Shown: positions 1,273 through 55,216 of the stretch, in pieces
Numbering within the stretch: the first letter of the stretch is position 1
Layout of the letters: each line of letters begins with the position of its first letter
Assembly: GCA_943736015.1 (NCBI GenBank)
Contig: OX031069.1
Span: 38,102,728-38,166,727, forward strand
Direction of reading: 5' to 3'
Origin: Tridacna crocea
Taxonomy: Eukaryota; Mollusca; Bivalvia; Cardiida; Cardiidae
DNA length: 64,000 nucleotides
Position numbers and translations under genes: made by a program
The notes under the pieces: generated by a model
Database searches by the model: none
What the model was told of the DNA's origin: nothing
What the model saw: the letters and a program-made list of their open reading frames with translations, nothing else

Positions 1273-1352
1273 ATGTCGGCTACTTATTTCTTTTTTATTC
1301 TTCTAGGATGTTTAATAAACGTGTACACATATCCATTACACGCTTCTTGTAA
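1273..1352 (+). CDS. Gene 1 exon 1, first part: signal peptide of secreted eight-cysteine protein (broken by insertion)
   Basis: The ATG at 1273 opens a frame whose first 26 residues form a clear signal peptide: MSATYFFFILLGCLI, then polar residues and Cys26. The frame is interrupted at 1352 by a transposon. The other side of the insertion (6168-6176) supplies nine more bases and a GT donor. With the element and one TAA removed, the exon is 89 bp and ends in phase 2, the phase exon 2 at 6909 requires. Read into the element, the frame stops at 1420-1422 (TGA), so this copy should not make the secreted protein. Alternative: the true start lies further upstream and this fit is chance. I think that is unlikely, because signal peptide, TSD and phase all agree. 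Confidence 0.65.
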
Positions 1353-1808
1353 AGCCTGTCTCACACAGAACACGGTTGGGCACACGGTTCCAATACGGTA
1401 TACTCGGTTATACACGGGTTGACTGGTACGAGTATTGAGCTCCAACCGTGCCTGGGGATGAGTTGGTACGATTTAGACTCGAATGTAGCACGAGTATGTA
1501 CGAACAAAGCACGGATATACTCGGTCAAGCAAGGTTTGTCACGGTTTGAACACGATTTGCAAACGATTTTCATACGATTGTTGTACGGTTCCAAGTACGG
1601 TCTAGTAGGGTCTGTTAAGGCCTAGTTCGATTAAACACGACTTTTACTCGATTAACTGGACATTTACAGGGTTTACATACGGTCCCACCGACTTTTGTTC
1701 GAGTTATGCTCGAATTATCACACATTCGTGTATGTTTTGATATAAATTGACTCGTTTTGATGGCTTGGCTTAATAAATTTTCGAATTTTCAACAGAGAAG
1801 TTATAAAA

Positions 1809-2066
1809 ATGGCAGATGACAGAATAAGGGAATTAGAAATCATGATAAGACTGATAGACATTGATATTATTTTGGCCAGAAGGCGTGAGGGGAGACAAGA
1901 ACAAGCCAACAGAAGTAGAAGAAGAAGGAGGCAAGTTTGGACAAGAGAATGGCTCAACAGAAGGGTCATGTTTGGTCGGAGGGCCTTGGTGGCCCTTTTT
2001 GTATTCTCGCTGAGAGAATCTTCCATGGTGGGGATTCTTTTGGGGACCTTCTTCTTTGGAGGCATT
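1809..2066 (+). pseudogene. Relic of PIF/Harbinger-type transposase N-terminus
   Basis: The open frame has an Arg-rich stretch followed by VWTREWLNRR and a glycine two residues later. It resembles the N-terminus typical of PIF/Harbinger nucleases, where RRRRR is followed by W-x-R-x-W-x-x-x-R. After about residue 55 the likeness is lost and no DDE triad is seen, so it is a fragment at best. The frame runs on into the inverted arm. Confidence 0.4.
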
Positions 2067-2067
2067 A

Positions 2068-3592
2068 TCACACTGATCAACGTGAGCCGCGGACACCATG
2101 TGTTCTCGGTACACCAGATCAAATTTTTCCATGGAAGAACCGAAGGTGGTGTAAGTATTTTCATTTTTATGGACCTGATTAACCTAGATAGAAATGTTGA
2201 TTTACAGCAATGTCAAGACGAATGATTGATCTGTTTACACACATACTAGGGAATAATAATACCATCATATAAGCGAGCTGTGGCTTTATGAGCAACTGGG
2301 GTCTTATTGTTTTGAAGTTTGTTGCAGATTTTCGGACAAAATCCCCTAACCATTGTTCATTTTACAAGTTTGTATAATAAGATAAATGTATTACCTGAAG
2401 GAACACAAAATTTCACTTAGAAATGTCCATCCAAAGCGAAGATATACGTTTTTGAATGGACCTGGGTAGAGGAAAATATGCTAAAAAGACACCATTTTCA
2501 TTTTCAGAGTATGCACATGGACACCAGATCAGAAAAGATTTTTGGTAACTGGACACCAACTTTTAAATCATCAATATTTCTTCCTGAAACTCGATGCATG
2601 GGCTGTATACGAAGACTATTTTTGTAAACATTGTCACTACGGTCCATTACCTGATAAAGAGCATGTTCAACGCAATTTCATTACTTGTAGCACTTGCTTT
2701 TTTGAAATATTTGCTATATTACGGCAATTTACGAAGTAGACCTACGATGTTTGATCACAATTGACCGGTCATTGCTTCCAATGCTGGTGCAAGACATGTT
2801 CTTTTTTTTTTACAGCGTTTCAGTTTTATGAATGGCGTATTAAACCATTACCACGCAATCACGAGCTTTAATGTCCCTGGGAAAGATGGCTTCGAAAAAC
2901 ATTGTATATAAAGAAAAAACCCTATTAACTAATACAGAGTGTACATTATTTACCACATTTGGCCTGATTCTTAGTTTGAATAATTTTCAAATCCCTTGGC
3001 CAACTGCCAGCGGGCTCTTAGAATGGCGTTCTACCATTCGTACATTTGCATGTGTGCGTTTGTTCGTCTACGCTTTTATTTCTAAATTTTTTATTTAATT
3101 GACTTCTCCTCAGAAACCACCAAGTGGAAATCAACAAAATTCAACGTGGAGGATTCCATAAATTTCTTTCGAGATACTTCGATCCTTTAAAAAAGATGGC
3201 TTATGTGGAAGGAGCTTATTTTCCGTGTATGGCGCGTTGTGAAAATTGTAAAATTTGTCCTCTCAAAAGAACTCAATCACGAGATTGGCATTGGGTAGCT
3301 TTCTATCACATTCCTTCAATACATTTTTATCTGTTGAAAAACATGGCTTTTGTTGGTGGGACTTATTTTCTCTTTGTGTCATAAAGCGGAAGTACTTGCA
3401 GCTTTTTAAATAAATTCATTGATAGTACATGTATGTAGATCTACATGTATTTCATAACACAGGTGATCACTGATAATGTTTCATTTTATCCAATATGCTG
3501 GGTGATCATGATTATATGAGATATTAATCTTTATTGTTACAAACTTACATAGTTCTTGGAAATGCAGCATTAGTGCTCAGAAATATTTTTGT
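2068..3592 (+). repeat. Left arm of a ~1.5 kb inverted repeat
   Basis: From about ATCACACTGATCAACGTGAG onward this is the reverse complement of 4067-5588, with only scattered mismatches and small indels. It includes a splice-donor-like GTAAGT near 2152. No intact protein is recognised. Confidence 0.8.
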
Positions 3593-4066
3593 ACGTAGTG
3601 TGTTAGGAGATTATTAGAGAGGTTAATTGCAGCCATGGCAAATTACTAAATTAAATCTTTTCTGAAATTCGTCATTTATAAAAAATAAACCACGTCTATT
3701 TCCTGTTTCGGTTTTTTTTATTTCGCTTTATTTACAAAACCATGACGAAACAGACTGTGTATCAGAACAATTACGCTCGAAGAAATAGAATTAGACAGCA
3801 AATTCTGTGGCAGTCTGCAATTTGAACTCACCACTGTTGGAGGGTCTGATGACCTACCTCTCCAATAAATTTCAGAAATACGAAATACAGTAAAACCTGG
3901 CATGTTGGCCACCTGTATTAAGCAAGCAACCTGAATAAACAAGCATACATGTAGTTCCCGACAAATAGCAATGCAAAGACATTCATCTGTATCAAGCAAG
4001 CACCTGCCTTTGGCAAGCTCTTTTGATCGTCCCTTTGGTAATTGATTAATATAGGTTGAACTGTAA

Positions 4067-5588
4067 CTATTTCTGAGCACTAATGCTGCATTTCCAAGAA
4101 CTATGTAAGTTTGTAACAATAAAGATTAATATCTCATATATCATGATCACCCAGCATATTGGATAAAATGAAACATTATCAGTGATCACCTGTGTTATGA
4201 AATACATGTAGATCTACATACATGTATTATCAATGAATTTATTTAAAGAGCTGCAAGTACTTCCGCTTTATGACACAAAGAGAAAATAAGTCCCACCAAC
4301 AAAAGCCATGTTTTTCAACAGATCAAAATGTATGGAAGGAATGTGATAGAAAGCTACCCAATGCTAATCTCGTGATTGAGTTCTTTTGAGAGGAAAAATT
4401 TTACAATTTTCACAACGCGCCGTACACGGAAAATAAGCTCCTTCCACATAAGCCATCTTTTTTAAAGGATCGAAGTATCTCGAAAGAAATTTATGGAATC
4501 CTCCACGTTGAATTTTGTTGATTTCCACTTGGTGGTTTCTGAGGAGAAGTCAATTAAATAAAAATTTTAGAAATAAGCGCGTAGACGAACAAGCGCACGC
4601 ATGCAAATGTACTAAGAGTAGAACGCCATTCTAAGAGCCCGCTGGCAGTTGGCCAAGCGGATTTGAAAATTATTTAAACTAAGAACCAGGCCAAATGTGG
4701 TAAATAATGTACACTCTGTATTAGTTAATAGGGTTTTTTCTTTATAGACAATGTTTTTCGAGCCATCTTTCCCAGGGACATTAAAGCTCGTGATTGCGTG
4801 GTAATGGGTTAATACGCCATTCATAAAACTGAAACGCTGTAAAATAAGAACATGTCTTGCACCAACATTGGAGGCAATGACCGGTCAATTGTGATCAAGC
4901 ATCGTAGGTCTACTTCGTAAATTGCCGTAACATTGCAAATATTTCAAAAAAGCAAGTGCTACAAGTAATGAAATTGCGTTGAACATGCTCTTTACCAGGT
5001 AATGGACCGTAGTGACATAATGTTTACAAAAATAGTCTTCGTATACAGCCCATGCATCGAGTTTCAGGAAGAAATATTGATGATTTAAAGGTTGGTGTCC
5101 AGTTACCAAAAATCTTTTCTGATCTGGTGTCCATGTGCATACTCTGAAAATGAAAATGGTGTCTTGTTAGCATATTTTCCTCTACCCAGGTCCATTCAAA
5201 AACGTATATCTTCGCTTTGGATGGACATTTCTAAGTGAAATTTTGTGTTCCTTCAGGGAATACATTTATCTTATCATACAAACTTGTAAAATGAACAATG
5301 GTTAGGGGATTTTGTCCGAAAATCTGCAACAAACTTCAAAACAATAAGACCCCAGTTGCTCATAAAGCCACAGCTCGCTTATATGATGGTATTATTATTC
5401 CCTAGTATGTGTGTAAACAGATCAATCATTCGTCTTGACATTGCTTTAAATCAACATTTCTATCTAGGTTAATCAGGTCCATAAAAATGAAAATACTTAC
5501 ACTACCTCCGGTTCTTCCATGGAAAATTCGATCTGGTGTACCGAGAACACATGGTGTCCGCGGCTCACGTTGATCAGTGTGATTATGT
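4067..5588 (-). repeat. Right arm of a ~1.5 kb inverted repeat
   Basis: Mirror of 2068-3592. The two arms could fold into a very long hairpin around 3593-4066. High identity suggests either a recent duplication or gene conversion between arms. Confidence 0.8.
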
Positions 5589-6167
5589 AGCAAGTACTCT
5601 GTTGCTTCAAGGTGGCAGCAGGTAGTTGTGTTTTCTGTTGTGTTCGAGTGCTGTATGATCATACACGAGCTATGTACAGACGTAGAGACCGTGTCTGGTC
5701 GTACTTGACCATGTATAATTCGTACCTGAACCGTATTGGTCGTATGGCGATCGTATAAAACCGTGTGTACACTCGTGTGAATCGTGCGGTGATCGTGAAA
5801 TTCTAGTGTTAATCCGGGTGTTGGATGTAGGACTTGGAAACGGTTTCACACGATTCCATACGATTTATATACGATATTGACACGGTTGAGCTCACTCGTG
5901 GAGTGGACTTCATGTGCGGTTGTATATACGGTCTCGTACGGTCTCACACGGTCTCTCACGGTCTTGTACGATCGCTAATACGATCATACACGGACATGGC
6001 ACCCGTGCCAGTTTTTTAAAAGTTTTAAAAATCATACACGGCTTTCACGGATACATTCGAATGGCCCGAGTGTAACTCGGATAAGGCCACGCTTGGTTCG
6101 GTTGTATGTACGGCCTACACGGGTGACCAACCGTATAAGCCGTGTGTTCTGTGTGAGACAGGCTTAA

Positions 6168-6176
6168 AATAAACTG
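6168..6176 (+). CDS. Gene 1 exon 1, last nine bases beyond the transposon
   Basis: After the right-hand TAA come AATAAACTG and a GTGAGT donor at 6177. Joined to 1352, these complete codons K27, I28 and N29 and leave TG in phase 2. The G that opens exon 2 at 6909 makes Trp30. The phase match is the main support for placing the transposon inside this exon. Confidence 0.6.
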
Positions 6177-6601
6177 GTGAGTGTTACATTTACACTTTCT
6201 TCCGGTGAATCTTCTAGAAATGTAGTAAACTTGGCATGCATTTCATCTGTACATAGCTTAGCTTTGCACCAAAATAATTAAATAGCATCTTGCGCCAAAT
6301 AAACCCTTGGGAAATTTTCATTCTGGAAAAAGACCCATATAGATCAAACTGCATATTTCTAGGTCGCTGTTTTTCAGAATTTCTCAGAGGACAGCGTGAA
6401 TCAAAGATTAGACTGCACTTTTCTTGCAGTCTGATATTGATCTAAAACAACCCTCAGTCATTTTTTCGAGCGGTGCACTGGTAAAGTGGAGCTCCGCCGT
6501 GATGCATGATACAAAGCAAGCCATAGCATGGGTTAAAAAATCCATTTTGTCAAGCAATCAAATGCATCATGATGTATGACGATATACTTATTGCAGATGT
6601 A

Positions 6602-6830
6602 TTGACTCGTTACCACTCGAGAAAATTTTAGATCAGTCCAAATTGAAAGCATTTGCAGATGACAATACAAAGGTGATTGAAAAATAAAAAAATGGTTTGG
6701 GAAGGCTAGAAAACATTGTGGGTAAAGGAGAAAATGCTGGTTACCAGCATTTTCTCCTTTTCCCATAATGTTTTTAAACGGCTTCCTTCTCATGGTCGTT
6801 AAAATTCGGGATTGTGTGGTAAAGAGTTAA
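6602..6830 (+). mobile_element. TTAA MITE, family A (intron 1 of gene 1)
   Basis: Consensus layout for the family: a TTAACTCTTTACCA-like end, an AAATTGAAAGCATTTGCAGA block, GAAAACATTGTGGG, the hairpin AAAGGAGAAAATGCTGG/TTACCAGC and its complement, then GGTCGTTAAAA and GTGTGGTAAAGAGTTAA. The hairpin is at 6719-6770. Here the left end has decayed to TTGACTCGTTACCA. Confidence 0.85.
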
Positions 6831-6908: not shown

Positions 6909-7020
6909 GTCATTTCCTTCCGTACCTTGTGAAACATTTAGTTCAAAGGTCCTTGCTCAGGCCCAGGCTTGGGAATCGGTGGATAACTGTGCGAACGGCG
7001 GAGAGAAATGTTTATATAAG
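6909..7020 (+). CDS. Gene 1 exon 2: start of mature secreted protein
   Basis: Acceptor TTCTACAG, donor AAG|GTAAAG. The first base completes residue 30, then residues 31-67 run SFPSVPCETFSSK to CLYK. It supplies Cys37, Cys57 and Cys64. The phrase VPCETFSSKVLAQAQ reads as real protein and is open only in this frame. Both ends are phase-compatible with the neighbouring exons. Confidence 0.8.
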
Positions 7021-7102: not shown

Positions 7103-7941
7103 GCACAGAATTAACCAAAGAAACACTTGTAGTATAGTAATAAGAGCCATATCTTTGCAATTTAAATGTCGTTTTTGTCAAAGAGACACTAGGAGTACCT
7201 ATTGTAGTAAGAGCCAAATTTTTGCAAGTTGAACGTCGTTTTTGTCGAAGAAACACTTCGAGTATAGTAGTGAGTGCCAAATCTTGGCAAGTTGAACGTC
7301 GTTTTTGTCGAAGAGACACTTCGAGTATAGTAGTGAGAGCCAAATCTGTGCAAGTTGAACGTCGTTTTTGTCGAAGAGACACTTCGAGTATAGTAGTGAG
7401 AGCCAAATCTGTGCAAGTTGAACGTCGTTTTTGTCGAAGAGACACGTCGAGTATAGTAGTGAGAGCCAAATCTGTGCAAGTTGAACGTCGTTTTTGTCGA
7501 AGAGACACGTCGAGTATAGTAGTGAGAGCCAAATCTGTGCAAGTTGAACGTCGTTTTTGTCGAAGAGACACGTCGAGTATAGTAGTGAGAGCCAAATCTG
7601 TGCAAGTTGAACGTCGTTTTTGTCGAAGAGACACTTCGAGTATAGTAGTGAGAGCCAAATCTGTGCAAGTTGAACGTCGTTTTTGTCGAAGAGACACTTC
7701 GAGTATAGTAGTGAGAGCCAAATCTGTGCAAGTTGAACGTCGTTTTTGTCGAAGAGACACTTCGAGTATAGTAGTGAGAGCCAAATCTTGGCAAGTTGAA
7801 CGTCGTTTTTGTCGAAGAGACACTTCGAGTATAGTAGTAAGAGCCAAATCTTGGCAAGTTGAACGTCGTTTTTGTCAAAGAGACACTTCGAGTATAGTAG
7901 TAAGAGCCAAATCTTGGCAAGTTGAACGTCGTTTTTGTTAA
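7103..7941 (+). repeat. 63-bp minisatellite, about 13 copies
   Basis: The unit is AAGTTGAACGTCGTTTTTGT + CGAAGAGACACTTCGAGTAT + AGTAGTGAGAGCCAAATCTGTGC. Since 63 is a multiple of three, the array stays open over about 240 codons in one + frame and three - frames. These are not treated as genes. Three adjacent units (7446-7590) share a T-to-G change (ACGTCGAG). Outer units are more diverged, as expected for an array growing from its middle. It lies in the intron between exons 2 and 3 of gene 1. Confidence 0.95.
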
Positions 7942-9884: not shown

Positions 9885-9998
9885 ATTACCTCCCAGTCAG
9901 CGAACGAGATTAAAGGAACACATACAACACCAGTGAAGAAATATGTCGATGATATTAGCTTTGCTTTGACCAAGAGTGGCAACGGCTGTAATGTCGAG
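9885..9998 (+). CDS. Gene 1 exon 3: middle of secreted protein
   Basis: Acceptor TCTCCCATAG, donor GAG|GTATTT, both phase 0. Codes residues 68-105, including THTTPVKKYVDDISFAL and Cys102 in SGNGCNVE. The other two frames contain stops. The TTPVKKYVDD-like core followed by a GC pair recalls uncharacterised small secreted proteins of marine invertebrates; that is memory, not a search. Confidence 0.8.
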
Positions 9999-10842: not shown

Positions 10843-10921
10843 GCTTACTCCAGATCTGAAACCTGGTATGCTTATTTGGATTATGGCACCAACTATTGCA
10901 ATCTCCGCAACCTTATCTCAG
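10843..10921 (+). CDS. Gene 1 exon 4: secreted protein, SETWYAYLDYGTNYC segment
   Basis: Acceptor CCTCTTTCAG, donor TCAG|GTAAGT. Enters in phase 0 and leaves in phase 1. Residues 106-131 read AYSRSETWYAYLDYGTNYCN and then LRNLIS; Cys124 is here. The aromatic, acidic sequence with a NYCNL motif is the most distinctive part of the protein. This is the exon I trust most. Confidence 0.85.
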
Positions 10922-12303: not shown

Positions 12304-12395
12304 GTTCTGCTTTGAATGGTACTAGTGGCTTTACAGAGAGCACCAGCGACGATGTCTGTACACAGTATAGTTCTGCTGACTGCAATAAATATTGA
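12304..12395 (+). CDS. Gene 1 exon 5: C-terminus of secreted eight-cysteine protein, with stop
   Basis: Acceptor TTTTCAG and stop TGA at 12393-12395. GT completes Gly132; residues 133-161 start SALNGTSGFTESTSDDVC and end in SSADCNKY, giving Cys150 and Cys158. The assembled protein has 161 residues. Its eight cysteines after the signal peptide (26, 37, 57, 64, 102, 124, 150, 158) could form four disulfides, as expected outside the cell. Function unknown; no enzyme motif seen. Confidence 0.8.
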
Positions 12396-12430
12396 TGACT
12401 TATAAAAGCAGATTTCGTGAATAATAAAGC

Positions 12431-12436
12431 AATAAA
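12431..12436 (+). promoter_or_regulatory. Polyadenylation signal AATAAA of gene 1
   Basis: AATAAA lies 35 bp after the stop codon, with another AATAAA-like AATAATAAA just before it. Spacing fits a short 3' UTR. Confidence 0.6.
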
Positions 12437-21462: not shown

Positions 21463-23310
21463 CTCAACCCTTTACTAGATAAACACTGGTTTCTCTGACC
21501 CTAAGAAGCCTTTTAAAAACATTGTGGGAAAAGGAGAAAATGCTGGTACCAAGGATTTTCTTCTTTTCCCTCAATGTTTTCTACCCTGCAAATTTCAACA
21601 AAAAAACAAATTTTAGTTTTTAGCTCACCTGAGCACAACGTGCTCAAGGGGAGCTTTTAGGATCACCCGGTGTCCGTCGTCCGTCGTGCGTCGTCCGTCG
21701 TGCGTCAGTGCGTCGTGCGTCGTGCGTCGTCAACAATTCTTTAAACATCAACTCCTCCTAAACCGCTGGGCGGATTTGGACCAAACTTGGCTGGAATGTT
21801 CCTTGGGAGGTCCTCTTTAAAAATTGTTCACAGAATTTGATTCCGTCAAAAACTCTGGTTGCCATGGCAACGAAATGGAATTTTTTAGCAAATTCTTTAA
21901 AAATCTTCTTCTCTGAAACCGCTGGCCAGATTTTAAAATAATTTCACACAGATGTTCCTTGGGTGACCCTTTTCAAAAATTGTTCGTGAAATTTTGATCC
22001 GTCAAGAAACATGGCTCTGGTGAATGGGGGCTTCTTGCACTATACAGAAATGATGAAATTCTTAAAAATTCTTCTTCTCTGAAACCGCTGGCCAGATTTT
22101 AAAATAATTTCACACAGATGTTCCTTAGGTGACCCTTTTCAAAAATTGTTCGTGAAATTTTGATCCGTCAAGGAACATGGCTCTGGTGAATGGGGGCTTC
22201 TTGCACTGTAAAGAAATGAAGAAATTCTTAAAAATTCTTCTTCTCTGTAACCGCTGGTCAGATTTTAAAATAATTTCACAGAGATGTTTCTTGGATGACC
22301 CTTTTCAAAAATTGTTCGCGAAATTTTGATCTGTCGAGAAACATGGCTCTGGTGAATGGGGGCTTCATGCACTATACAGAAATGAAGAAATTCTTAAAAA
22401 TTCTTCTTCTCAGAAACCGCTGTTTAGATTTTAAAATAATTTCACAGACTTGTTCCTTGGGTTACCCTTTCCAAAAATTGTTTGCGAAATTTTGATTGGT
22501 CAAGAAACATGGCTCTGGTGAATGGGGGCTACTTGCACTATATAGAAATGAAGAAATTCTTGAAAATTCTTCTTCTCTGAAATGGCTGGACAGATTTTGA
22601 AATAATTTCACAGAGATGTTCCTTGGGTGACCCTTTTCTAAAATTGTTCGCAAAATTTTGATTGGCCAAGAAACATGGCTCTAGTGAATGGGGGCTACTT
22701 GCACTATATGGAAATGAAGAAATTCTTGAAAATTCTTCTTCTCTGAAACCTGTGGTCAGATTTTAAAATAATCTGACAGAGATGTTCCTTGGGGGACCCT
22801 TTCCAAAAGCTGTACATATAATTTTGATCCATCAAGAAACATGGCTCTTGTGAATGGGGGCTACTTGCACTATATGGACATGATGAAATTCTTTAAAATT
22901 CTCTTTCTCTGAAACCCCTGGTCAGATTTCGAAATTATTTCAGAGAGATGTTCCTTGGGTGACTCTTTTCAAAACTTGTTCGTAAATTTTGATCCATCAA
23001 GAAACATGGCTCTCATGGATGGGGGCTACTTGCTCTTATACAGAAATGAAGAATTCTTAAAAATTCTTCTTTTTGAAACTGATGGTCAGATTTCGAAATG
23101 ACTTTTACAGGTGACCTTTTGAAAATTGCTTGGCAGAATTATAAATTTGGTTCCAATGTTTCAATACCTCAAAAAAAAAATAGACTATGGTCATCTCAAA
23201 AATTCAGGTGAGCGATCCAGGGCCATCTTGGCCCTCTTGTTGAGTTATGTGTACATGTATATTGTAGTCTGCTAGTGCTTTCAATTTGGACCTGTCAAAA
23301 TTTGTCGCCC
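21463..23310 (-). mobile_element. Family A MITE, reverse, split by a HINE element
   Basis: Left part 21463-21620: CAACCCTTTACTAGATAAAC, hairpin, then AAATTTTAGTTTT. Right part from 23242 resumes GAGTTATGTGTACAT...CTGCTAGTGCTTTCAATTTG as in intact reverse copies. The 1.6 kb between is the Helentron-type element listed next. Confidence 0.75.
21621..23241 (+). mobile_element. Helentron-associated element (HINE/pearl-like), family 1, copy 1
   Basis: Starts TAGCTCACCTGAGCAC and ends CAGGTGAGCGATCCAGG, hairpin GGGCCATCTTGGCCC, then TCTTGTT. The short inverted pair CTCACCTGA/TCAGGTGAG, a (CGTCCGTCGTG)n microsatellite at 21671-21730, eight or so ~167 bp core units (GGCTCTGGTGAATGGGGGCT) and a 3' hairpin are the DINE-1/pearl layout. 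Non-autonomous; no Rep/helicase gene. Confidence 0.8.
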
Positions 23311-42259: not shown

Positions 42260-44086
42260 TTAACTCTTTACCAAACGACAAAATTTTGGACTTGTTCAAA
42301 TTGAAAGCATGTGCAGACGACAAAATAAATTTGAATCAAAAACTGAAATTCGATTTGGAAAGGGTAGAAAATTTGTGGGAAAAGGAGAAAATGCTGGTAA
42401 CCAGCATTTTCTCCTTTTCCCATAATGTTTTCAGAGGCTTCCTTTTTAGCTCACCTGAGCACAACGTGCTCAAGGGGAGCTTTTAGGATCACCCGGAGTC
42501 CGTCGTCCGTCGTGCGTTGTGCGTCGTCAACAATTCTTTAAACATCAACTCCTCCTAAACCGCTGGGCGGATTTGGACCAAACTTGGCAGGAATGTTCCT
42601 TGGGAGGTCCTCTTTAAAAATTGTTCACAGAATTTGATTCCATCAAAAACTCTGGTTGCCATGGCAACCAAATTGAATTTTTTAGCAAATTCTTTAAAAA
42701 TCTTCTCCTCTGAAACCGCTAGTCAGATTTTGAAATAATTTCACAGATATGTTCCTTGGGTGACCCTTTTCAAAACTTGTTCGTGAAATTTTGATTCGTC
42801 AAAAAATGTGGCTCTGGTGAATGGGGGCTTCTTGCACTATACAGACATGAAGGAATTCTTTAAAAATCTTCTCCTCTGAAACTGCTGGTCGGATTTGGAA
42901 ATAATTTCACAGATATGTTCCTTGGGTGACCCTTTTCAAAACTTGTCTGTGAAATTTTGATCCGTCAAAAAATGTGGCTCTGGTGAATGGGGGCTTCTTG
43001 CACTATACAGAAATGAAGGAATTCTTAAAAAATCTTCTTCTCTGAAACCGCTGGTCAGATTTTGAAATAATTTCACAGAGTTGTTCCTTGGGTTACCCTT
43101 TTAAAAAATTGGTCGCGAAATTTTGATTGGTCAAGAAACATGGCTCTGGTGAATGGGGGCTTCTTGCACTATACAGAAATGAAGAAATTCTTAAAAATTC
43201 TTCTTCTCTGAAACAGCTGGTTAGATTTTGAAATAATTTCACAGACTTGTTCCTTGGGTTACCCTTTCAAAAATTGTTCGCGAAATTTTGATTGGTCAAG
43301 AAACATGGCTCTGGTGAATAGGGGCTACTTGCACTATACAGAAATGAAGAAATTCTTGAAAATTCTTCTTCTCTGAAATGGCTGGACAGATTTTGAAATA
43401 ATTTCACAGAGATGTTCCTTTGGTGACCCTTTTCTAAAATTGGTCGCGAAATTTTGATTGGCCAAGAAACATGGCTCTAGTGAATGGGGGCTACTTGCAC
43501 TATATGGAAATGAAGAAATTCTTGAAAATTCTTCTTCTCAGAAACCCGTGGTCAGATTTTAAAATAATCTGACAGAGATGTTCCTTGGGTGACCCTTTCC
43601 AAAAGCTGTACATATAATTTTGATCCGTCAAGAAACATGGCTCTTGTGAATGGGGGCTACTTGCACTATACGGACATGATGAAATTCTTTAAAATTCTCT
43701 TTCTCTGAAACCCCTGGTCAGATTTTGAAATAATTTCAGAGAGATGTTCCTTGGGTGACCCTTTTCAAAACTTGTTCGTAAATTTTGATCCATCAAGAAA
43801 CATGGCTCTCGTGGATGGGGGCTACTTGCTCTTATACAGAAATGAAGAATTCTTAAAAATTCTGCTTTTTGAAACTGATGGTCAGATTTCGAAATGACTT
43901 TTACAGGTGACCTTTTGAAAATTGCTTGGCAAAATTATAAATTTGGTTCCAATGTTTCAATACCTCAAAAAAAAAAAAAAAAAATAGACTATGGTCATCT
44001 CAAAAATTCAGGTGAGCGATCCAGGGCCATCTTGGCCCTCTTGTTCAGGGTTGTTAAAGGTCGGGATTGTGTGGTAAAGAGTTGAA
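42260..44086 (+). mobile_element. Family A MITE split by HINE family 1, copy 2
   Basis: Left part 42260-42446 with an intact hairpin, up to CAGAGGCTTCCTTT. Right part resumes at 44044 as CAGGGTTGTTAAAGGTCGGG and ends GTGGTAAAGAGTTGAA. The break is inside the CTTTCTCAGGG block. Confidence 0.85.
42447..44043 (+). mobile_element. Helentron-associated element (HINE/pearl-like), family 1, copy 2
   Basis: TAGCTCACCTGAGCACAACG to CAGGTGAGCGATCCAGGGCC, hairpin GGGCCATCTTGGCCC, TCTTGTT. Core of eight or nine ~167 bp units. Almost the same order of core variants as in 21621-23241, so the two derive from one recent source copy. Confidence 0.85.
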
Positions 44087-45378: not shown

Positions 45379-45430
45379 TAGAAATGCTTGGTGAATTAAC
45401 TCTATATTTAAAATCTTTTATTTCTTCCAG

Positions 45431-45570
45431 GCTTAGAATTTATAACGGAGTTTCAGAAACCCAATAAAGCATCTTTGGCAAGGTATGTTTGCAATTTATG
45501 TCAGTCAAGGTGTGACGAGGCGGCCATTGTACCACATCTGATTGGAGTAAAGCACAGACTGAAATACTTT
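45431..45570 (+). CDS. Gene 2 exon 10: zinc finger 3
   Basis: Acceptor TATTTCTTCCAG, donor TTT|GTAAGT. GC completes Gly469; residues 470-515 are LEFITEFQKPNKASLARYVC and NLCQSRCDEAAIVPH then LIGVKHRLKYF. Ligands Cys489, Cys492, His504 and His510 give C-x2-C-x11-H-x5-H, one residue shorter in the middle than fingers 1 and 2. The whole finger is in one exon, whereas an intron splits each of the other two. Confidence 0.92.
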
Positions 45571-45669
45571 GTAAGTGACCTTTTCATGCCAACTTAATGT
45601 AAATAGAAAACTCTCGTCATAACTCTATACGACATGACAAAACTCTCGGCATAACTCAATACTACATGA

Positions 45670-52967: not shown

Positions 52968-55216
52968 GTGGCCCTTCAGATTTTGAGACAAAATTTAAAA
53001 AAAAAATACAAAAACATCATTCTTGTACTCCCAAAGCCTTATAATTTTCATTCATTAAACCCACGTAGTCAAAAACAATCCGACAGCTAGATAAATTAGA
53101 GATTTACTACAGCCCAGGTCGACACTGAAGGGAAACACGGTCTATTTTTACATGAGTAACTCGCTCATTTACATACCAGAAATATACAAACGAAGCTTCA
53201 AACATAGAATCCGAAGTTCTAGACATTATGGAAAATAATTTTTATTTGTTATACGCCCGTCGAAGACGGGACGTATTATGGGATCACCCGTGGCGGGCGG
53301 GCGGGCGGGCGGGCGGCGTCCAGTTCTTTGTCCGGAGCATATCTCCAAAATTATACTAGCTAGGGTTATGAAATTTCATGGGTGGATACATCTCATCGAG
53401 GGGGAGTGCAGTGCACAAGAATCATAACTCTTGCTCGCTTAATTTTTGAGTTATTGCCCTTTGTTGTTTTTCATACTTGAATTTTGTCCGGAGCATATCT
53501 CCAAAACTATAGTAGCTAGGATTATGAAATTTCATGGGTGGATAGATCTCATCAAGGGGGAGTGCAGTGCACAAGAATCATAACTCTTGCTTGCTTAATT
53601 TTTGAGTTATTGCCCTTTGTTGTTTTTCATACTTGAATTTTGTCCGGACCATATCTCCAAAACTATACTAGCTAGGGTTATGAATTTTCATGGGTGGAAA
53701 GATCTCATTGACGGGGAGTGCAGTGCACAAGAATCATAACTCTTGCTCGCTTAATTTTTGAGTTATTGCCCTTTGTTGTTTTTCATACTTGAATTTTGTC
53801 CGGAGCATATCTCCAAAACTATACTAGCTAGGGTTATGAAATTTCATGGGTGGATAGATCTCATTGACGGGGAGTGCAGTGCACAAGAATCATAACTCTT
53901 GCTCGCTTAATTTTTGAGTTATTGTCCTTTGTTGTTTTTCATACTTGAATTTTGTCCGGAGCATATCTTCAAAACTATAGTAGCTAGGGTTATGAAATTT
54001 CATGGGTGGATAGATCTCACCGAGGGGGAGTGCAGTGCACAGGAATCATAACTCTTGCTCGCTTAATTTTTGAGTTATTGCCCTTTGTTGTTTTTCATAC
54101 TTGAATTTTGTCCGGAGCATATCTCCAAAACTATACTAGCTAGGGTTATGAAATTTTATGGGTGGATAGATCTCATTGACGGGGAGTGCAGTGCACAAGA
54201 ATCATAACTCTTGCTCGCTTAATTTTTGAGTTATTGTCCTTTGTTGTTTTTCATACTTGAATTTTGTCCGGAGCATATCTTCAAAACTATAGTAGCTAGG
54301 GTTATGAAATTTCATGGGTGGATAGATCTCACCGAGGGGGAGTGCAGTGCACAGGAATCATAACTCTTGCTTGCTTAATTTTTGAGTTATTGCCCTTTGT
54401 CGTTTTTCATACTTGAATTTTGTCCGGAGCATATCTCCAAAACTATACTAGCTAGGGTTATGAAATTTTATGGGTGGATAGATCTCATCGAGGGAGAGTG
54501 CAGTGCACAGGAATCATAACTCTTGCTCGCTTATTTTTGAGTTGCCCATTGTTGTTTTTCATACTTGAATTATGTCCGTAGCATATCTCCAAAACTATAC
54601 TAGCTAGGGTTATGAAATTTTATGGCTGGATAGATCTTACCGAGGGTGTGTGCAGTGCACAGGAATCATAACTCCTGCTTGCTTAATTTTTGAGTTATTG
54701 CCCTTTGTCGTTTTTCATACTTGATTTTTGTTCGGAGCATATCTCCAAAACTATAGTAGCTAGGGTCATGAAATTTCATGGGTGGATAGATCTCATCCAT
54801 GGGGAGTGCAGTGCACAGGAATCACAACTCTTGCTTGATTTATTTTTGAGTTATTGCCCTTTGTTGTTTTTCATACTTGAATTTTGTCGGGTGCATGCCC
54901 CACCTTTACAACTTGGGGTAAGACGGGCGTATCTTGCGACAATTTGCCGCTCTTGTTATGTTATGGAATTTGATAGTCATAAGTCACGTGCAAGTCACTT
55001 AACATTCCCACAATGCTTTTTTGATTTTGGCGGGAAATCTAAAAATAGATTAAGAGGCTACGTAGCCTTTTAAGGGAATACCACCAAGAAATTTTTTTTC
55101 TGTAATTTTATGATTCTTAATTACTGATGATTTGTATTGTTTTTTATATAAATTTCAGTGACATATATATTTTTTAATTTGGTGTCATGTGAAAATTCTA
55201 AATACCCACCTTTAAG
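52966..55216. mobile_element. TIR element CTTAAAGGTGG...CCACCTTTAAGG carrying a nested HINE
   Basis: Short inverted ends TTAAAGGTGG (52966) and CCACCTTTAA (about 55206). Its unique sequence is 52977-53248 and 54958-55205; the 1.7 kb between is the nested element listed next. Superfamily unknown. Confidence 0.5.
53249..54957 (+). mobile_element. Helentron-associated element (HINE-like), family 3
   Basis: Starts TTATACGCCCGTCGAAGACG and ends AAGACGGGCGTATCTTGCGA, imperfect hairpin GCGACAATTTGCCGC, then TCTTGTT. Inverted pair ATACGCCCGTC/GACGGGCGTAT, a (GGGC)n run at 53295-53316, and about ten ~155 bp core units with GTCCGGAGCATATCTCCAAA. Same architecture as families 1 and 2. Confidence 0.8.

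What the first reader, a model, noticed from the sequence alone, without database searches (positions are those of the whole stretch)
1273..6178. DNA transposon sitting inside the signal-peptide exon of a secreted-protein gene
A 4.8 kb element with inverted ends and a TAA duplication splits the exon at codon 27. Removing it plus one TAA gives an 89-bp exon with a signal peptide, an eighth cysteine (Cys26) that makes the total even, a GTGAGT donor, and the phase (2) that exon 2 needs. With the element present the frame ends at 1420-1422. The gene should therefore be null on this haplotype, unless the element is spliced out or the gene uses another first exon.
Basis: partly seen in the sequence, partly recalled or inferred. 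Interest (0 to 1): 0.75.

Follow-up and report, generated by a model that had tools for sequence, protein, structure and literature searches.

The report
Nested transposons split secreted-protein gene exon
A young mobile DNA element, itself carrying a second one, has landed in the exon that encodes the export signal of a small animal secreted-protein gene, most likely switching that copy off; this is a clean example of a familiar kind of mutation.

Summary
Element 1353-6164 (4812 bp, 21-bp perfect inverted ends, TAA duplication) sits in codon 27 of exon 1 (1273-6176). The exon-1 model, a guess when made, is now confirmed: two paralogues on the same chromosome have the same five-exon gene, and their exon 1 reads ...PLHASCKADW with a phase-2 donor, against ...PLHASCK[element]INW here. 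All eight mature cysteines, Cys26 included, are shared. The protein hits Pfam DUF1499.

Main correction: this is two elements, not one. A 1.29-kb non-autonomous PIF/Harbinger copy (3 differences in 1294 from another copy, so probably recent) carries inside it a 3.5-kb palindromic element with its own ATTAT duplication, from an abundant family.

With the insert the frame stops at 1420-1422. No other leader exon showed up in a limited scan of 9.9 kb upstream to 6908. The allele is most likely a recent loss-of-function allele. Cryptic in-frame splicing is possible on paper, but the routes worked through give an odd cysteine number. No RNA and no second haplotype were seen, so null status and polymorphism are inferred, not shown. 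Ordinary mechanism, well-resolved case.

The parts
1273..1352 (+). left part of coding exon 1 (signal peptide, PLHASC, first two bases of codon 27), ending in the left TAA duplication (1350-1352)
   Evidence: homologous to exon 1 of both paralogues
1353..2068 (+). left part of the non-autonomous PIF/Harbinger element; starts with the 21-bp terminal inverted repeat; ends with the left ATTAT (2064-2068)
1809..1982 (+). remnant of the start of a Harbinger transposase (MADDRIRELE...RRRRRQVWTREWLNRRVMFG)
   Evidence: C14:38104536-38104709; matches two transposases of the same genome by blastp that carry DDE_Tnp_4
2069..5581 (.). nested 3513-bp palindromic (long terminal inverted repeat) element, CACACTGATC...GATCAGTGTG, 5-bp duplication ATTAT
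2069..3588 (.). left arm of the nested element
   Evidence: arm against arm 35 of 1514 aligned positions differ
4065..5581 (.). right arm of the nested element (reverse complement of the left); loop 3589-4064
5582..6164 (+). right part of the Harbinger element, beginning with the right ATTAT (5582-5586), ending in the right terminal inverted repeat
6165..6176 (+). right TAA duplication (6165-6167) and last 9 bases of exon 1; donor GTGAGT at 6177-6182
6909..7020 (+). exon 2 (phase 2 in, phase 0 out)
9885..9998 (+). exon 3
10843..10921 (+). exon 4
12304..12395 (+). exon 5 with stop TGA; AATAAA at 12423-12428 and 12431-12436
7118..7938 (.). 63-bp minisatellite, 13 copies, in intron 2

Best explanation
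A non-autonomous PIF/Harbinger transposon of about 1.3 kb, moved by a transposase supplied in trans, inserted at the TAA inside the conserved Cys26-Lys27 codons of the signal-peptide exon of a small secreted DUF1499-like gene. A 3.5-kb palindromic transposon of another family inserted into it (before or after that event, not resolved). The open frame now runs only 23 codons past Cys26 (the first shared between exon and insert), so this allele should make only the signal peptide plus a short tail: a recent loss-of-function allele. Shown: the gene model, both elements, both duplications, the close similarity of the outer element to other copies. Inferred: loss of function, recency, transposase in trans, polymorphism in the population. 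From published mPing work, Harbinger-type elements generally excise precisely, but excision falls with element size, so the nested insert should make reversion less likely (inferred for this case).
For: Two paralogues with the same exons, phases and N-terminus. 21-bp ends and TAA duplication; 12 of 13 copies examined (window included) have identical 3-bp flanks, 11 of these TAA or TTA. Window copy differs from L022 at 3 of 1294 and from L028 at 6 of 1284 positions. 42 facing exact-end pairs in the genome by my own count of the list: 40 of 0.89-1.33 kb, one of 2.5 kb, and the window at 4.8 kb. Nine of 12 fetched copies keep the nest site, these nine with a single ATTAT; the other 3 are internally deleted there. 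The element's ORF fragment is homologous to transposases with DDE_Tnp_4. Limited leader-exon scan from 9.9 kb upstream to 6908: no candidate. Excision literature: PMC4561436 (abstract), PMC10288884 (abstract and section 2.3).
Against: No RNA data. Exons 2-5 are intact, although that says little for so young an insertion. In-frame cryptic splice combinations exist. L022, the closest copy, has unequal 3-bp flanks (TAA/TTA) and L028 has TAC. No full-length transposase of the same subfamily was found: the 41 matches at 85% or more among the 150 scored (of 526 candidates) have open frames of at most 177 aa (introns could hide one). No near-identical source copy of the nest was seen: best non-self match 98% over its first 632 bases. 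The leader-exon scan had no positive control.
Confidence: 0.82

Rival explanations
1. The insert is spliced out, wholly or mostly, as a new intron (introner-like), so that an altered protein is still made. One route: donor 1349 (CTT|GTAAAG, spanning the duplication and the element's first bases) to an exon start at 6158 in the right inverted repeat, giving PLHAS-Y-RLKINW in frame. Another: donor 1398 (ACG|GTATAC) straight to exon 2. A third: donor 1398 to 6162.
For: The combinations are in frame; real donors of this gene family include GTAAAG, GTATTT, GTATCT and GTATAG. Introners that take the 5' site from the duplication and carry the 3' site are described in PMC9860276 (passages).
Against: The intron would be up to 4.8 kb or more with a hairpin of 1.5-kb arms inside; by eye the acceptors lack a good pyrimidine tract. 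The first route loses conserved Cys26 (7 mature cysteines), the other two add one (9); these cysteine counts are mine. With several donors, acceptors and phases some in-frame combination is expected by chance (no chance rate computed). [quoted passage not shown]
Confidence: 0.12
2. The gene is used from a different first exon, so the split exon does not matter.
For: Not excluded by DNA alone; the scan covered only 9.9 kb upstream to 6908 and only ATG leaders with a hydrophobic stretch and a GTRAG donor in phase 2.
Against: No candidate in that scan (no positive control, and the rule would have missed the GTATCT donor of the 31.5-Mb paralogue). Both paralogues have the homologous exon. PLHASCK occurs only here in 147,816 windows.
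Confidence: 0.04
3. The 4.8 kb is a single DNA transposon that carries its own palindromic interior.
For: One pair of matching ends and one TAA duplication bound the whole.
Against: Nine of 12 fetched copies have the uninterrupted site with a single ATTAT, the other 3 are deleted there; the interior occurs on its own elsewhere in the genome with its own 5-6 bp duplications in the 10 of 12 fetched copies where both ends were found.
Confidence: 0.01
4. Assembly error joining an unrelated repeat into the gene.
For: Repeats with near-identical copies can be misjoined in principle; reads were not available.
Against: Perfect target-site duplications at both nesting levels and the exact rejoining of a conserved exon are what transposition gives and a misjoin does not.
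Confidence: 0.01

Closest known systems
PIF/Harbinger non-autonomous elements (Tourist-like MITEs; mPing of rice as the worked example)
   Same: 3-bp TWA-type duplication, short terminal inverted repeats, internally deleted copies that keep the start of a Harbinger transposase, related DDE_Tnp_4 transposases in the genome
   Different: Larger than mPing (430 bp, PMC10288884, section 2.3); this copy carries a nested 3.5-kb element; mobility not tested; no full-length transposase of the same subfamily found
Foldback-type DNA elements with very long terminal inverted repeats (for example Tetris and Galileo of Drosophila, seen in the listing only)
   Same: Nested element is almost all inverted repeat: 1.52-kb arms, 476-bp loop, short duplication, many copies
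   Different: 5-6 bp duplications; superfamily not assigned; three open frames of the left arm and one across the loop gave no Pfam match at E up to 1
Introners (intron-generating transposons; PMC9860276, passages)
   Same: Inverted repeats and a duplication inside a coding exon; possible splice sites at both junctions
   Different: No splicing shown; 4.8 kb against family medians of 30-654 nt; the escape products change the protein

Membership tests
PIF/Harbinger (outer element) | 3-bp target-site duplication, TWA | tested here: met
   Window TAA/TAA; 12 of 13 copies have identical flanks, 11 of them TTA or TAA; exceptions L022 (TAA/TTA) and L028 (TAC/TAC). The TWA rule itself is recalled
PIF/Harbinger (outer element) | short terminal inverted repeats | tested here: met
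   21 of 21 bp
PIF/Harbinger (outer element) | Harbinger transposase with DDE_Tnp_4 domain in the element or an autonomous relative | tested here: inconclusive
   Only the transposase start survives in the element; two relatives in the genome, 55% and 46% identical over the matched stretch, carry DDE_Tnp_4 at E 9.2e-29 and 5.5e-29; no full-length copy of the same subfamily found
PIF/Harbinger (outer element) | mobilised by ORF1 and transposase proteins | not testable with these tools
   needs an excision assay
Foldback-like long-TIR element (nested) | very long inverted arms, short target-site duplication, multi-copy | tested here: met
   Arms 97% alike; duplications of 5 bp (8 copies) or 6 bp (2 copies) in the 10 of 12 fetched copies where both ends were found; L045 was cut short by my own request and L051 showed no recognised right end; 1081 first-look candidates, 40 scored
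Introner | the element is removed as an intron | not testable with these tools
   no RNA; in-frame junctions only on paper
DUF1499 (gene product) | Pfam profile above its gathering score | tested here: met
   Window protein 29.8 bits (exons 2-5) and 29.3 bits (with exon 1) against 22.6; the two paralogues fall below the cut-off, 15.5 and 18.1 bits

The most novel reading that the evidence does not exclude
The nested insert is being tolerated as a newborn intron: the GTAAAG formed by the exon, the TAA duplication and the element's first bases serves as donor and the right inverted repeat supplies the acceptor, so the animal makes a variant protein without Cys26, and the transcript carries a 1.5-kb-armed hairpin of an abundant transposon that could feed small-RNA silencing of that family.
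Probability: 0.06. Interest if true: 0.6.

Novelty: new member of a known kind. Interest (0 to 1): 0.35.

Why it matters
It is a base-exact natural loss-of-function candidate in an uncharacterised secreted-protein family with two paralogues as internal controls, so carriers and non-carriers could be compared directly. The difference counts also suggest that the palindrome's arms were already diverged when this copy jumped: the host element is only 3 of 1294 bases from its nearest fetched copy, while the arms differ from each other at 35 of 1514.

Tried and rejected
Considered and rejected or not supported: a single 4.8-kb element; arms of the palindrome as captured gene exons (open frames in the window arms looked exon-like, but Pfam gave nothing for those tested, and the consensus of 18 arms has no open frame over 93 residues; not strictly excluded); an alternative leader exon (the scan only accepts GTRAG donors and had no positive control). 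Synonymous divergence from the paralogues is saturated (pS 0.83-0.91), so no rate ratio was usable. The 151-nt fold around the right end was not unusual (z -1.07). The literature search was badly worded and useless; DUF1499 alone gave two papers, neither on this animal family as judged from title and start of abstract. A search for Harbinger or MITE insertions in exons was seen as a listing only.

Not answered: a DNA search for a second haplotype copy of intron 1 (window 6180-6700) did not complete. The only evidence on that point is that the protein search gave one match in each of exons 2-5 at this locus, and its other nine matches lie in the two paralogues (eight) and on C7 (one, E 2.4).
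Full report
What was claimed and what is there. The sequence shows it: element 1353-6164, 4812 bp, 21-bp perfect inverted ends, TAA at 1350-1352 and 6165-6167. Joining the flanks with one TAA gives an 89-bp exon ending before GTGAGT at 6177, in phase 2, as exon 2 at 6909 requires. With the insert the open frame stops at 1420-1422, 23 codons past Cys26.

Is the exon real? This was the weak point, because a signal-peptide-like stretch and a GT are easy to find by chance. The window lies in a 1.05-Gb assembly of 31 contigs, C14:38102728-38166727. A protein search with exons 2-5 gave 13 matches: four here, eight in two further loci on the same chromosome, near 25.20 and 31.52 Mb, and one insignificant (E 2.4) on C7. 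Both loci have the same order of exons, and upstream of their exon 2 lies an exon with a signal peptide ending PLHASCKADW and a phase-2 donor. The window reads PLHASCK, then the element, then INW. Full-length proteins are 53% and 54% identical to the window's, with PLHASCK, the Trp and all eight mature cysteines invariant, Cys26 included. PLHASCK occurs once in 147,816 six-frame seven-residue windows of the 9.9 kb upstream plus the window. The exon-1 model can be taken as established by homology.

What the gene is. The joined exons 2-5 match Pfam DUF1499 at 29.8 bits (cut-off 22.6, E 8.6e-7) and with exon 1 at 29.3 bits; the paralogues match the same family below its cut-off (15.5 and 18.1 bits). 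No PDB relative was found at a meaningful E-value. Function is not known; nothing in these searches suggests a toxin or effector (of the two PDB rows, both at noise level with E 0.95 and 0.99, one is named venom allergen 3).

What the insert is. Twelve other copies of its left end were fetched. In these, the outer parts of the window element are joined directly: 9 have the counterpart of 1353-2068 next to that of 5587-6164 with a single ATTAT, and 3 have a larger internal deletion that removes the site. So the middle, 2069-5581, is a separate element with its own ATTAT duplication. It is almost entirely palindrome: 1.52-kb arms, 97% alike, 476-bp loop. It belongs to an abundant family: 1081 first-look candidates, of which the 40 scored were 96-100% identical over 632 bases (two of the 40 are the window's own arms). 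Of 12 further copies fetched, 10 have both ends recognised; these show duplications of 5 bp (8) or 6 bp (2). Of the other two, L045 was cut short by my request and L051 shows no recognised right end.

Superfamily of the outer element. It has 3-bp duplications (12 of 13 copies with identical flanks; 11 of these TTA or TAA, one TAC; L022 is unequal), short inverted ends, and a surviving transposase start. The longer copy L055 reads RRRRQVWTREWINRRVMFGQYDTLLHELNREDP and matches two transposases of the same genome whose ORFs carry DDE_Tnp_4. I file it as a non-autonomous PIF/Harbinger element. The 41 matches of 85% or more to that start, among 150 scored of 526 candidates, have open frames of at most 177 aa, so an autonomous member of this subfamily was not seen; an intron could hide one.

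Age and order. The Harbinger parts differ at 3 of 1294 positions from L022, 6 of 1284 from L028 and 2.4-3.1% from the other ten fetched copies. No mutation rate is known here, so no date is given, but the insertion looks young compared with the spread of the family. L022 and L028 lack the nest, so the nest most simply came after the split from them. The nest's two arms differ at 35 of 1514 positions, far more than the host element has changed, so the arms were probably already diverged when this copy jumped. Against a simple picture of a very recent jump, no near-identical source copy of the nest was seen: the best match outside the window is 98% over its first 632 bases. A cut-and-paste source can be lost, so this does not decide. 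Whether the nest landed before or after the Harbinger element reached the exon is not resolved.

Consequence. A transcript of this allele read in the normal way ends translation in the insert. Exons 2-5, their splice sites and poly(A) signals are intact, but for so young an insertion that is expected either way. A limited scan found no alternative leader (no positive control). Cryptic splicing could rescue the frame on paper: 1349 to 6158 (loses Cys26), 1398 to exon 2 or 1398 to 6162 (each adds a cysteine) (cysteines counted by me). These need RNA. [quoted passage not shown] neither was seen here.

Verdict. The finding is real and correctly read in its main point; the refinement is that two transposons are nested and that paralogues establish the exon. 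As biology it is a probably recent gene-disrupting insertion, a known kind of event, with the species, the allele frequency and the RNA still unknown. Widespread gene presence-absence variation has been reported in a mussel (PMC7653742, passages), which shows that missing genes need not be rare in some animals; that this species is a mollusc is only my guess.

Noticed in passing
window 21700-23241 and 42498-44045: A 1.55-kb block containing a 166-bp tandem repeat (about 7 copies each) is present twice, 94.5% identical, about 21 kb apart.
   Followed up: partly
window, 37 places from 6727 to 63795: A near-perfect 31-base hairpin (GGAGAAAATGCTGGTWACCAGCATTTTCTCC, up to 3 substitutions) occurs 37 times in 64 kb; it appears to be the core of a short repeat family (no chance expectation computed).
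   Followed up: no
window 53327-54896: 156-bp tandem array, 10 copies, 93% matches.
   Followed up: no
window about 15102-61400: Exon-like open frames rich in Arg, Ser and charged residues, by eye with a zinc-finger-like piece at 45412-45594; they may be one large nuclear-protein gene. The 8 pieces tested gave no Pfam match above its cut-off.
   Followed up: partly
L037:2844-3417: Downstream of exon 4 of the 31.5-Mb paralogue lie at least two partial repeats of the end of exon 4 (STNYCNMRTLIEG, SANYCNMRNL), a partial tandem duplication.
   Followed up: no
L022 (C1:12718173-12719466): The fetched copy closest to the window's element has unequal 3-bp flanks (TAA/TTA), as if its duplication was altered or two insertions recombined.
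   Followed up: no
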